Source: Planctomycetota bacterium (GTDB lineage Bacteria > Planctomycetota > Planctomycetia > Gemmatales > Gemmataceae). From it: a stretch of 37,371 bases of DNA. The stretch covers positions 6,518-43,888 of the forward strand of contig JAKBCS010000016.1 of the NCBI GenBank assembly GCA_021807595.1. The letters are read 5' to 3'. The position numbers were made by a program, and so were the translations under genes. Every line of letters begins with the position of its first letter. Within the stretch, counting starts at the first letter, position 1. Shown here one piece after another: positions 3,441 through 18,350 of this stretch. The notes under the pieces are model-generated. The model was not told the origin of the DNA, did not search any database, and saw only the letters and a list, made by a program, of their open reading frames with translations.

Positions 3441-4254
3441 GGTAACTCCGAAAGGCAATCCGTTCTCGCTGTGCCGATTCGCCTCTGACAAACCGAGCCT
3501 GGGATAATAGGACTACTGCCACAACATTCCGAACAGTGAAGGGCTACAGCAGTTTCTTTACCAGAGCTAACTTGCTTTCTACAAGATACTTTCGGAGACG
3601 AGAATCCTCTGAAAAGAATGAGCCATGAACCGTGTGGTTTGCCGCTCGCCGCGACGATATCTTGGCCGACGCCGAGGTCGATCCTGCCATCGACATGGTT
3701 TTTGACGGTGTAAGCCGGTCGGGGAGAAAATGGGACTCCGGCGTTGACGGTGGCGACGTTGCAGAAATGAATTGCGGGTGTGTTGAAGCCTCTTTTGGGT
3801 ACGAGTCGTTGTGCGTACCAGCGTCGCCCGTCGAGGTGTAGTTTGCGACGTATTGAGGAAGCACGGCTGTACCGCTGGAAAGCCCTGAACCGCTTGCCGC
3901 CGTTGAGAATCGGCCAAAGAAAAGATGGTCCACGGTAGAATTAGGAAGGAGCTTAACTCCGGCCACGATGCGCCGGGACGTATCGTCCTTGTCGTCGCCA
4001 TTTCGCCCGATGGCAAGACTGTGCAATCCCGCGACTCCGGCGGCACCATCTACGTCCACAAATCGAGCGAGTAACACCGGTTGCAGTGAAACGGTGCATA
4101 GGAGCTTCTGCGAGGCCGCAATCTCCTCGCTTCTACCCGCACTGACCTCACCTCGCCGACTTGTAGAGTAAATTTGAGTCGGACATCCGAGCATAAAAGC
4201 ATATCGTAAAGTGGATCGAGGAACTCGACTCACTTTAAGAATCAGGAATCGTTT
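3441..4254. other. Intergenic region without a confident gene
   Basis: About 810 nt between valS and tdh with lower GC than its neighbours. The plus strand carries only short open stretches. One of them (about 3907-4074) reads VAISPDGKTV...GGTIYV near its end, which recalls a WD40/propeller strand but is too short to call. The minus strand has a long open frame, listed separately as a possible decayed gene. No terminator or strong promoter was seen. Confidence 0.5.
3544..4194 (-). pseudogene. Possible decayed minus-strand gene, unknown product
   Basis: A minus-strand frame stays open from ATG 4194 to the stop at 3544 (216 residues), which is long for a spacer. Its first part (roughly 4075-3890) uses codons typical of the real genes here (gac, gcc, ggc, atc, ctc) and reads FVDVDGAAGVAGLHSLAIG. 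From about 3840 downward, a different minus frame has the more coding-like codon use and reads FNTPAIHFCNVATVNAG and VDGRIDLGVGQDIVAASGK. That pattern suggests one gene with a frameshift near 3840-3880. I do not recognise the family; an FG-GAP or beta-propeller type surface protein is only a guess. There is no good ribosome-binding site. It could equally be chance openness. Confidence 0.25.
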
Positions 4255-15419: not shown

Positions 15420-15811
15420 GTCGATCCTCCTTGATCTCGTCTCAACGACGGACGCCTTCCGCGCGTATCCCAAACCGGCACGCCCATTGTTACCGGAGAT
15501 CGAGCCGGCGCGAAGACGAAGTTGCCACGACCGGACTGAATGCGCAGGGTACAATGGGCTATCGTCTCATCGAGAGCGTCGAGGAAACCAAAACAAAAGA
15601 GTCCACGAACGGTTGTCGGAAGTGGAACGCTAAACGTCCGCTCTGACGCCGAAGCGAATACGCTACGGCCGGCGCGCCGAATTGCGACGAGGAGGATGCC
15701 TCGGAGCGGGTGAGTGCTACCTTCCGAGAGTTAGCCTCTTGCCCTCCACCCTTGCCGCGGTGAGAATAGCGGTAGTCTCGCCCCATTCCTTCGCACGAGG
15801 AGATGCTTGCC
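15420..15811. other. Divergent intergenic region between methyltransferase and peroxiredoxin genes
   Basis: About 390 nt separating two divergently transcribed genes, so it should hold both promoters. The methyltransferase ribosome-binding site AAGGAGG (minus strand, 15426-15432) and the peroxiredoxin site GAGGAG (15797-15802) lie at its ends. Short frames in between look like chance. I see no confident -35/-10 pair or operator-like palindrome, and no C-box-like repeat expected of a controlled restriction-modification locus. Confidence 0.5.
15426..15432 (-). promoter_or_regulatory. Ribosome-binding site deciding the methyltransferase start
   Basis: Minus-strand AAGGAGG, 6 nt upstream of GTG 15419-15417. 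This near-perfect Shine-Dalgarno sequence favours the shorter, 296-residue product over the frame starting at 15554. Confidence 0.85.
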
Positions 15812-16372
15812 ATGCGCTTGCTACGCATTCTCGGATTGGCCGGCCTAGTCGGCCTGGCCGTCCCCGGTTTCGCCGAAGAGAAGTCGGCAAAGGTCGAAGA
15901 GGGGAAACCCGCGCCGTCCTTCGATTTGCCCGCCGTCAACATCGACAGAGTTTTTCCGGACAAGAAAGATGCCAAAACTCTTAGTCTGAAGGATCTCAAA
16001 GGGAAGCACGTCGTCTTGTTCTTCTATCCAAAAGCATTGACCGGGGGCTGAACCATCGAGGTCTGCGGCTATCGCGACCACGCCGAGCAGTTTGCTCGAG
16101 CCAACACCGTCCTCCTGGGTATCAGCGTCGACAAGTTGGAAGATCAAAAGCGATTTTCGGACAAAGAAAAGCTGACATATCCCCTTCTGGCCGATCCAAC
16201 GAAAAAGACCGCGAAGGCTTACGGCGTACTCTCCGAACGCGGCTACTCCAATCGTGTGACCTTCGTCATCGACAAGAACGGCGTCGTTCGCAAGATCTAT
16301 CCCAAAGTCAAACCGGCCGAGAACGCCGGGGAAGTCCTCGATTGGATCAAGACCAACCTCACGGATAAATAG
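15812..16372 (+). CDS. Secreted Bcp/PrxQ-type peroxiredoxin with in-frame TGA at the peroxidatic Cys: candidate selenoprotein
   Basis: A 186-residue frame read through TGA 16049-16051. The ATG at 15812 has GAGGAG 9 nt upstream. A signal peptide (MRLLRILGLAGLVGLAVPGFA) predicts export. The thioredoxin fold follows: GKPAPSFDLPAVN, LKDLKGKHVVLFFYPKALTGG, then TGA, TIEVCGYRDHAEQF, LLGISVDK, YPLLADP, YGVL, RVTFVIDKNGVVRKIY. The Bcp/PrxQ motif is TPGC-T-x4-C-G-x-RD, so the TGA falls exactly on the peroxidatic Cys, giving U80-x4-C85 with the resolving Cys kept. The frame stays intact for 107 more codons with family-conserved sequence. A SECIS-like hairpin begins at 16060. Peroxiredoxins are an established bacterial selenoprotein family. 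The alternative is a single Cys-to-stop mutation (TGC or TGT to TGA) making a fresh pseudogene. No sel genes are in the window. Confidence 0.8.
16060..16079 (+). promoter_or_regulatory. Candidate bacterial SECIS hairpin downstream of the TGA
   Basis: GGTC (16060-16063) pairs with GACC (16076-16079), T16064 is a bulge, GCG (16065-16067) pairs with CGC (16073-16075), and the loop is GCTAT. Beyond an A-A mismatch, C57-G82 and G58-C81 can extend the stem. A bulged U below a short stem and an apical loop starting with G are hallmarks of the E. coli fdhF SECIS that SelB recognises. The loop starts 17 nt after the last base of the TGA, within the usual range. These codons also encode the conserved VCGYRD, so the fold could be partly coincidental. 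Confidence 0.6.
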
Positions 16373-16436: not shown

Positions 16437-17510
16437 TTACCGGCTGACGAGGGTGAGGGGAGCCGTTGGCTTATCCTTTTCGATGTTTATTTTCTGTTGG
16501 AATGTCCAACGTCCTTCCACGTCCTGCGTGTACATCAACCAATTACCGGACGGTAGCTTCGCGCGAAATCTCCCGGCTTCATCCGCGATCGTCGTTTGCC
16601 TTCCGCTTTCGTCATCGGCCCGAACGAAGACGATCTTGGCGCGGGCCAACGGGCTGCGGTCGGCGCGCAGCAAGCGTCCCTCGGCGTTGTAGCTGGGAGT
16701 CGAGGTGATGCGGTCGTAGCGCACACGCGGTGTGGTCGCGGGGGCGGCAGGTTGTGCCGGCAACGGCGATTGAAGCTGCGGCGGACGATAGGACGTACCG
16801 TTCTTCGCCGGCGGCATGAACGGAATGCGGTTGGAGGTCTGATTGCCTTGGCCGGGAGGCTCGATTGTCCCGGTGCCACCGGAGGGCGGGCCGTTCGGCT
16901 GACCCCCGACGGCGGGAGGCGTACCCATCGGCCCCCCGGAGACAGCCGGTTGTTGTTGCGGCACGGCTACCCCCGTCGATCCGGGCGGCGGCGCGGCCAC
17001 GGGAGCGCCGATGGTGGTCGTGCAGCACGTTGTTTGCGGTTCGTAATAGTTCACCTGTTGATAGGTCGTCACCGGCTGCAAGCAGCAGCGTTGGAGATAG
17101 CTCGTTACCGGGCAAGATTGCGAACGCAGCCGATAGGTCGTTACAGGTTGAGCGACTTGCTGGTAACTGCACGAACAAGGATCGTAGTAGCAGCTGTACC
17201 GATAGCTCGTGCAAGGTTCGTAGTAATAGCTGGTGCGATAGCTGGTCACAGGTTCCGCATAGCAGCTCTGCCGATAGGTGACAACCGGCTGATAGTAGCT
17301 GCGCTGCACATAATTGGTCGTGCATTGCTGGCATCCGCCGCTCGGCGCGGCCACGGCGACGGGGGCGACCGGAGCCGCGTAGCTCGATCCGCTCCGGCAA
17401 CTGTGGCAACAAACCTGGAAGACGTTATTCCAGGCGGCTTCGGCGGAGCCGTTCCCCACGGCCAAGACCGCCAGCGCGCCGCACCACAACGAAACCCGGA
17501 AGGGTCTCAT
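16437..17510 (-). CDS. Secreted Cys/Tyr-rich repeat protein with CarboxypepD_reg-like C-terminal domain
   Basis: A 357-residue predicted surface or cell-envelope protein. A signal peptide (MRPFRVSLWCGALAVLAVGNGSAEA) precedes a Cys/Tyr-rich region (about residues 30-150) of degenerate units such as YYQPVVTYRQSCY, AEPVTSYRTSYYYEPCTSYRYSCYYDPC and QPVTTYRLRSQSC. A Pro/Gly/Gln-rich linker (about 160-270) follows. The last 80 or so residues (YNAEGRLLRADRSPLARAKIVFVRADDES...DEAGRFRAKLPSGNWLMYTQD) look like a carboxypeptidase-regulatory (CNA-B-like) beta-sandwich. The Tyr-Thr/Cys repeats recall the YTV-type proteins proposed as cell-wall components in Rhodopirellula; that link is tentative. The ATG at 17510 is chosen for AAGGAG about 8 nt upstream and the signal peptide. 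Confidence 0.82.
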   Translation of the reverse strand: MRPFRVSLWCGALAVLAVGNGSAEAAWNNVFQVCCHSCRSGSSYAAPVAPVAVAAPSGGCQQCTTNYVQRSYYQPVVTYRQSCYAEPVTSYRTSYYYEPCTSYRYSCYYDPCSCSYQQVAQPVTTYRLRSQSCPVTSYLQRCCLQPVTTYQQVNYYEPQTTCCTTTIGAPVAAPPPGSTGVAVPQQQPAVSGGPMGTPPAVGGQPNGPPSGGTGTIEPPGQGNQTSNRIPFMPPAKNGTSYRPPQLQSPLPAQPAAPATTPRVRYDRITSTPSYNAEGRLLRADRSPLARAKIVFVRADDESGRQTTIADEAGRFRAKLPSGNWLMYTQDVEGRWTFQQKINIEKDKPTAPLTLVSR

Positions 17511-17828
17511 GGCACATTCTCCTTCCCAGCGGGTTTGCTTCTCGGTGCCTCTCGACAGCTCCAGCACGCGCTGGAGTCGCACCACGAAACCTCTCGAACG
17601 AATCGGCGCACCCGTGGCTCACGTCGATCCTTCTTTATCCTTAATTACCTGCAATCGTCGATCAAGAGAGGAGAGCGCATTCCCATTGGGAAAATCCGGA
17701 CGCCGCCGATACAACTGTCGGATCCGCTATAGTCAACAACCCCCACGTTTTGACCGTGAGGGTTGAGGCGCGTCTGGGAGACATGGGAAAGATAGAAAAG
17801 TCTCCCTTTCCTTGACTTGCAGCTGCAC

Positions 17829-18350
17829 TTAGCCAACGATGGCTTTGATGGCCGTCAGGGCGGATTCGTAGTTGGGATGAGAGCCGACCTCCGGCACATA
17901 CTCGGCATGGGTGATAACGCCGTCTTTATCGACCACGAACACGGCTCGACTCAGCAGGGCCAACGGCAGTCCTTCGATGAGAACACCGTAATTATGGCCG
18001 AACGAATGATTGTGAACGTCCGACAGCGTCTGCATGTTGGTGATGTTCTCCGCCGTGCAGAATCGCTTCTGCGCGAACGGTAGATCGAGGCTGATGGTGT
18101 AGCAGGCGAGTTTGTCTTTGTAAGCGCCGAGAGCCTCGTCGAATTTGTGCGTTTGCTGGTTGCACACGGGCGTATCCAACGACGGGACAACACTGAACAG
18201 CCGGGCCTTCGCGGGCGTTTTGTCGAGTCCGACGACATCGAGTCCGCTCAGGCAGGCGAAGCCCGGCGCTTTATCGCCGGCCTTCAGTTGTGGACCAACG
18301 AGCGTGAGCGGGTTGCCTTTGAAGGTGACGGCATTGGGACGTTTCAGCAT
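17829..18350 (-). CDS. tpx: Thiol peroxidase Tpx
   Basis: Atypical 2-Cys peroxiredoxin of 173 residues that reduces hydrogen and alkyl peroxides using thioredoxin. The peroxidatic Cys is C63 in SLDTPVCNQQT and the resolving Cys is C98 in FCTAEN, matching E. coli C61/C95. The N-terminus VTFKGNPLTLVGPQLKAGDKAPGF and the end GSHPNYESALTAIKAIVG are family-typical. There is no signal peptide, so it is cytosolic here. GAGAGGAA lies about 9 nt before the ATG. It lies 1.5 kb from the candidate seleno-peroxiredoxin, but on the other strand and separated by another gene, so they are not an operon. Confidence 0.96.
   Translation of the reverse strand: MLKRPNAVTFKGNPLTLVGPQLKAGDKAPGFACLSGLDVVGLDKTPAKARLFSVVPSLDTPVCNQQTHKFDEALGAYKDKLACYTISLDLPFAQKRFCTAENITNMQTLSDVHNHSFGHNYGVLIEGLPLALLSRAVFVVDKDGVITHAEYVPEVGSHPNYESALTAIKAIVG

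What the first reader, a model, noticed from the sequence alone, without database searches (positions are those of the whole stretch)
15812..16372. Candidate selenocysteine-containing, secreted Bcp/PrxQ peroxiredoxin
The only in-frame stop inside an otherwise intact peroxiredoxin is a TGA located exactly at the peroxidatic Cys (TGG-U-T-I-E-V-C-G-Y-R-D, U80-x4-C85). Everything after it, 107 codons to a natural C-terminus, keeps family sequence and codon use. Random nonsense mutation would rarely hit this very codon, whereas Sec-for-Cys exchange at redox sites is the rule for selenoproteins, and peroxiredoxins are a known bacterial selenoprotein family. Ordinary annotation would split this into two fragments or call it a pseudogene. 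The protein also has a signal peptide, so it would be an exported selenoenzyme, whose folded state and export route are of interest.
Basis: partly seen in the sequence, partly recalled or inferred. Interest (0 to 1): 0.9.

Follow-up and report, generated by a model that had tools for sequence, protein, structure and literature searches.

The report
Exported selenocysteine peroxiredoxin in a planctomycete
An apparent stop codon in the middle of a peroxide-destroying enzyme gene of a Gemmataceae bacterium is almost certainly read as selenocysteine, the 21st amino acid, at the catalytic position; this kind of selenoprotein is already known, but this member looks exported and its lineage has swapped selenocysteine and cysteine many times.

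Summary
Window 15812-16372 (+) encodes a 186-residue Bcp/PrxQ-type peroxiredoxin with a predicted signal peptide; its only in-frame stop is TGA at 16049-16051, exactly at the peroxidatic Cys. The selenocysteine reading is strongly supported. A second species of the genus has the same TGA, and the 106 codons after it are under purifying selection (dN/dS 0.15). Homologues carry TGA (27) or TGC/TGT (48) at this codon and no other stop. TGA forms have better SECIS-type hairpins than Cys forms (P = 8e-7); here CGAGCA-GUU-UGCUCG. The genome encodes SelB and a SelD that is itself a selenoprotein. selA and selC are missing from this 95.5%-complete assembly, but all three genus relatives have both, and the selB contig ends exactly where selA follows in a relative. 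It is a new member of a known selenoprotein family (Prx, COG1225/Bcp, TxxU). Less ordinary: predicted export, a Prx-selB cluster in four relatives, at least seven supported Sec/Cys switches, and relic SECIS hairpins in some Cys forms. Sec insertion, export and activity are inferred, not measured.

The parts
15812..16372 (+). Gene of a Sec-containing Bcp/PrxQ-type peroxiredoxin (186 aa including U80)
   Evidence: Pfam AhpC-TSA 1e-37
15812..15874 (+). Predicted Sec-pathway signal peptide MRLLRILGLAGLVGLAVPGFA (no twin Arg, no lipobox Cys)
   Evidence: sequence inspection; hydrophobic N-terminal leaders also in the related homologues, absent from cytosolic Bcp types
15796..15802 (+). Shine-Dalgarno-like CGAGGAG about 9 nt before the ATG at 15812
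   Evidence: inspection
16049..16051 (+). TGA codon read as selenocysteine (U80) at the peroxidatic position
16064..16066 (+). Cys85, probable resolving cysteine (U80-x4-C85)
   Evidence: C-x4-C spacing of atypical 2-Cys Bcp/PrxQ is from established knowledge
16084..16098 (+). Candidate bSECIS hairpin CGAGCA-GUU-UGCUCG, loop 37-38 nt after the UGA
   Evidence: fold z = -3.6; conserved in 9 TGA homologues with U-A/C-G/A-U exchange at one pair; synonymous-codon control p = 0.02

Best explanation
The gene encodes an exported selenol/thiol peroxidase of the Bcp/PrxQ type in a Gemmataceae planctomycete. During translation the UGA at codon 80 is recoded: SelB carrying Sec-tRNA(Sec) binds the hairpin 37-38 nt downstream and delivers selenocysteine instead of termination. 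The protein is led out of the cytoplasm by an N-terminal signal peptide (Sec pathway inferred). There U80 would be oxidised by hydroperoxides to a selenenic acid, which C85 resolves to a selenenylsulfide that a thioredoxin-like reductant reduces. Shown computationally: the reading frame, the family, the position of the TGA, selection on the downstream part, Sec/Cys exchange in relatives, the hairpin, SelB and SelD. Inferred: tRNA(Sec) and SelA (probably in assembly gaps), actual Sec insertion, export and peroxidase activity.
For: TGA is the only stop and sits at the peroxidatic Cys. The same TGA is in a congeneric species, with dN/dS 0.15 over the 106 downstream codons. 27 TGA and 48 TGC/TGT forms at this codon, with no other stop in the aligned part of any. 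Hairpin energies after the codon: TGA mean -6.7, Cys mean -2.9 kcal/mol, P = 7.5e-7; 58% of TGA forms against 4% of Cys forms beat synonymous recodings at p < 0.05. GAG-CAG-TTT-GCT has no synonymous change in 9 TGA homologues, and the next pair covaries. SelB with SelB-wing_3 domain in the genome. SelD with in-frame TGA. selA and tRNA-Sec (anticodon UCA) in all three genus relatives. 22 of 24 TGA-bearing genomes of the order have selB. In four relatives the Sec-Prx gene lies directly upstream of selB, in one of them followed by selA.
Against: selA and selC were not found in this assembly. The missing selC could not be tied to a contig end: synteny with G003 stops just before selC and other DNA follows. 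The hairpin loop starts at 37 or 38 nt, at or just beyond the edge of the published 16-37 nt range (PMC13188914). Covariation rests on one variable pair. The excess of selB among TGA genomes over Cys genomes is not significant (P = 0.11). Two TGA homologues (L198, L205) have no clean hairpin, and G060 (L205) lacks selB. No selenium or protein measurement.
Confidence: 0.95

Rival explanations
1. Pseudogene: a nonsense mutation has truncated an ordinary peroxiredoxin.
For: The assembly lacks selA and selC, and an in-frame stop is the usual sign of decay.
Against: Same TGA in a second species with dN/dS 0.15 after it; TGA recurs at this codon in 24 genomes of the order; no other lesions; SECIS hairpin; selB and Sec-type selD kept.
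Confidence: 0.02
2. UGA is read as another residue (reassignment, or readthrough by a near-cognate tRNA) rather than Sec.
For: Sec identity is inferred, not measured; selC not seen in this assembly.
Against: The codon alternates only with Cys codons; SelB, SelD and the SECIS-type hairpin are specific to Sec; the peroxidatic site needs a thiol or selenol (established knowledge).
Confidence: 0.02
3. Sequencing or assembly error turning TGC/TGT into TGA.
For: The source is a fragmented assembly (282 contigs).
Against: TGA found independently in G003 and many other assemblies.
Confidence: 0.005

Closest known systems
Selenoprotein Prx family, COG1225 (Bcp), TxxU motif (PMC1088965, PMC2398784, PMC9312934)
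   Same: Same domain family, Sec at the peroxidatic Cys in PxxxTxxU, bacterial SECIS downstream, widespread Cys homologues.
   Different: This member has a predicted signal peptide and a Gemmataceae origin; in some relatives its gene sits next to selB and selA.
PrxU of Eubacterium acidaminophilum (NF040737)
   Same: Sec-containing peroxiredoxin; an experimentally studied selenoenzyme (cited in PMC9312934).
   Different: Scores far below the NF040737 cut-off (54.5 against 270 bits); a different Prx subfamily.
E. coli Bcp / PrxQ (PRK09437)
   Same: Family and spacing of peroxidatic and resolving residues (x4).
   Different: Cys instead of Sec, cytosolic, no SECIS; the window protein scores 108.8 against a cut-off of 140.
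Planctomycete selenoproteomes of the Porphyra isolates P1 and P2; Sec genes in Gemmata obscuriglobus (PMC4807772)
   Same: Planctomycetes with complete Sec-insertion gene sets.
   Different: The main text does not name this gene; its supplementary list could not be read here.

Membership tests
Peroxiredoxin (AhpC/TSA, Bcp/PrxQ type) | AhpC-TSA domain above gathering score | tested here: met
   129.3 bits against 26
Peroxiredoxin (AhpC/TSA, Bcp/PrxQ type) | PxxxTxx(C/U) active site and conserved Arg | tested here: met
   P73, T77, residue 80 and R148 invariant
Peroxiredoxin (AhpC/TSA, Bcp/PrxQ type) | Curated cut-off of the bcp equivalog model PRK09437 | tested here: not met
   108.8 bits against 140: a Bcp-like subfamily, not the E. 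coli-type equivalog
Bacterial selenoprotein (Prx, TxxU) | In-frame TGA at a redox position with Cys homologues | tested here: met
   27 TGA, 32 TGC, 16 TGT
Bacterial selenoprotein (Prx, TxxU) | bSECIS model: loop 3-9 nt, G in the first two loop positions, stem 4-16 bp, energy at most -7.5 kcal/mol, spacing 16-37 nt | tested here: inconclusive
   Loop GUU or AGUUU, stem 5-6 bp, -10.5 kcal/mol with its flank, spacing 37-38 nt: met at the edge of the spacing range
Bacterial selenoprotein (Prx, TxxU) | SelB and SelD in the genome | tested here: met
Bacterial selenoprotein (Prx, TxxU) | SelA and tRNA-Sec in the genome | tested here: inconclusive
   Absent from the 95.5%-complete assembly, present in all three genus relatives; contig break at the expected selA site
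Bacterial selenoprotein (Prx, TxxU) | Selenium in the protein | not testable with these tools
   needs 75Se labelling or mass spectrometry
Exported protein | Cleavable signal peptide and extracytoplasmic location | not tested
   Leader recognised by eye only; no signal-peptide predictor was on hand

The most novel reading that the evidence does not exclude
Exported Sec-peroxiredoxins of Gemmataceae are co-expressed with selB-selA and tied to selenium supply, so that Sec at this one site is gained and lost repeatedly, with the SECIS hairpin kept for a time after loss and able to allow a return to Sec.
Probability: 0.15. Interest if true: 0.6.

Novelty: new member of a known kind. Interest (0 to 1): 0.45.

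Why it matters
Standard annotation would split the gene or call it a pseudogene, so it corrects annotation across an order of planctomycetes. The family offers close Sec/Cys pairs (for example G028/G029 and G103/G099) with present, relic and broken SECIS elements, useful for timing the order of events in Sec loss or gain, and a peroxidase whose Sec residue is predicted to work outside the cytoplasm.

Tried and rejected
Rfam scan of the window: no hits. tRNA-Sec model in G000: eleven matches, all under the cut-off; the best eight are ordinary tRNA-Ser, -Leu, -Gly and -Tyr by ARAGORN. A selC core pattern with up to 3 mismatches found nothing in G000 but found the G003 control. The hairpin GGUC-UGCGGCUAUCGC-GACC nearer the UGA (spacing 16) was considered as the SECIS and set aside, because the same GCG-loop-CGC occurs in Cys homologues and follows from coding CGFRD. 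The association of TGA forms with selB is in the expected direction but not significant. A first DNA alignment with wrong coordinates (A2) was discarded. No structure prediction was run, as the family assignment was already clear.

Full report
Observation. The reading frame described is there. ATG 15812 follows a good ribosome-binding site; the frame runs to TAG at 16370-16372 and is interrupted once, by TGA at 16049-16051. Read through, the product matches AhpC/TSA (Pfam, 1e-37) and, among named subfamilies, the Bcp model best, though below its cut-off. The TGA stands at the peroxidatic position: in an alignment of 14 homologues P73, T77, residue 80 and R148 are invariant. C85 gives the U-x4-C spacing known for the resolving cysteine of Bcp/PrxQ.

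Is it translated? G003, another species of the genus, has the gene in the same neighbourhood, with TGA at the same codon. DNA identity is 90%; dN/dS is 0.04 before and 0.15 after the TGA, against 0.76 and 2.6 for the shifted frames after it. A dead 3' half would not show this. It also excludes a sequencing error.

Sec/Cys exchange. In 75 homologues, mostly from the same order, the codon is TGA in 27, TGC in 32 and TGT in 16, and none has another stop in the aligned part. A few of these are copies of one genome held in two collections. On a maximum-likelihood tree the label changes at least 12 times by parsimony, of which 7 are forced by well-supported branches. Close pairs such as L028 (Cys) and L030 (Sec), and L192 (Cys) and L193 (Sec), differ at this codon.

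SECIS. The stretch CGAGCA-GUU-UGCUCG lies 37-38 nt after the UGA and folds at -10.5 kcal/mol with its flank (z -3.6). Its core GAGCAGUUUGCUC is identical in nine TGA homologues down to about 50% protein identity, without one synonymous change in GAG CAG TTT GCT. L028, the closest Cys relative of L030, has it broken (GAACAGUUUGCCC). The base pair next to the core is U-A, C-G or A-U in eight of nine sequences. Most other TGA homologues have unrelated hairpins with a G near the start of the loop at 17-33 nt. Over all distinct sequences, hairpins after TGA are stronger than after Cys codons (means -6.7 and -2.9 kcal/mol, Mann-Whitney P = 7.5e-7). Against synonymous recoding, 58% of TGA forms and 4% of Cys forms reach p < 0.05; related sequences are not independent, so the P value is too small by an unknown amount. 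The published bSECIS model asks for a 3-9 nt loop with G among its first two bases, often followed by G or U, and 16-37 nt spacing (PMC13188914). This element fits if the closing A-U is counted in the loop (37 nt) and is one base outside otherwise. Some Cys forms (L191, L192, L098, L099 and L222) keep a hairpin nearly like that of their TGA relatives, which looks like a relic of recent Sec loss.

Machinery. The window lies in G000, 5.67 Mb, 282 contigs, 95.5% complete. SelB is present (C81:885-2834, 385.8 bits) with the C-terminal SelB-wing_3 domain. SelD is present and has an in-frame TGA at the usual site (ASCAGUAGKL), a second selenoprotein in the same genome. SelA was not found, nor tRNA-Sec. 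The three other genomes of the genus each have SelA (576-582 bits) and tRNA-Sec (73-75 bits; UCA anticodon by ARAGORN). In G003 the order is selB, an ORF, selA; in G000 contig C81 has selB and a 66%-identical copy of this ORF, and ends two residues before the ORF's end, where selA would start. selC of G003 lies next to a DcuC-like gene and an integrase gene; in G000 the synteny ends with the DcuC-like gene and the contig goes on with other DNA, so the place of selC there is open. The simplest reading is that selA and selC fell into assembly gaps.

Context. In G006 the Sec-Prx gene is followed directly by selB and selA, and in G084, G085 and G087 directly by selB, on the same strand. In the window it stands alone between a DNA methylase gene and a Cys/Tyr-rich protein gene, both on the minus strand, so there is no operon here. 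Of 24 TGA-bearing genomes in the order 22 have selB; of Cys-bearing ones 32 of 42 (P = 0.11).

Export. MRLLRILGLAGLVGLAVPGFA-EEKS has the charged, hydrophobic and small-residue parts of a Sec-pathway signal peptide. Homologues of this subfamily have comparable leaders; the cytosolic Bcp types of other families do not. This was judged by eye. That the Sec residue works outside the cytoplasm is therefore likely but untested.

Organism. Named close relatives are Gemmataceae or other Planctomycetota assemblies, and the genome shares a family with an uncultured Gemmata, so the window comes from Gemmataceae.

Known or new. Sec-containing Prx assigned to COG1225 (Bcp) with a TxxU motif was found in numbers in the Sargasso Sea and GOS data and is listed among experimentally supported prokaryotic selenoproteins (PMC1088965, PMC2398784, PMC1794560, PMC9312934). 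One survey found Sec-Prx in 78 organisms (PMC5029168). Planctomycetes, including Gemmata obscuriglobus, were known to have Sec genes (PMC4807772). No paper in the library holds both 'Gemmataceae' and 'selenoprotein'. So the case is a new member of a known kind, with well-resolved Sec/Cys turnover and predicted export as its points of interest.

Noticed in passing
L224, L225, L226, L227 (G006, G085, G087, G084): The Sec-Prx gene lies directly upstream of selB (and selA in G006) in relatives, a possible operon of a selenoprotein with its own insertion machinery.
   Followed up: partly
L021:661-1740 (-), G000:C218: SelD of the same genome is itself a selenoprotein (TGA in ASCAGUAGKL).
   Followed up: partly
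L191, L192, L098, L099, L222: Cys-coding homologues that keep a SECIS-like hairpin close to that of their TGA relatives: probable relics of recent Sec-to-Cys change.
   Followed up: partly
L205 (G060) and L198 (G072): TGA forms without a clean SECIS hairpin; G060 also lacks selB. Could be decaying genes or use imperfect hairpins.
   Followed up: partly
L179 (G003:C209), tRNA-Sec at 3793-3888: tRNA-Sec gene followed by an integrase gene, so selC may be an integration site of a mobile element in this genus.
   Followed up: no
window 17829-18350 (-): A second peroxidase gene (thiol peroxidase, PRK00522, 178 bits) 1.5 kb away, with Cys at its active site.
   Followed up: no
window 16437-17585 (-): Cys/Tyr-rich repetitive protein (SYRTSYYYEP-type repeats) with a weak carboxypeptidase-regulatory-like C-terminus; perhaps a surface protein.
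   Followed up: no
L037 (G036): Homologue from another family of the class with TGA, no C85 equivalent and a twin-arginine leader (SRRAWLQ), suggesting Tat export of a Sec-Prx without the usual resolving Cys.
   Followed up: no
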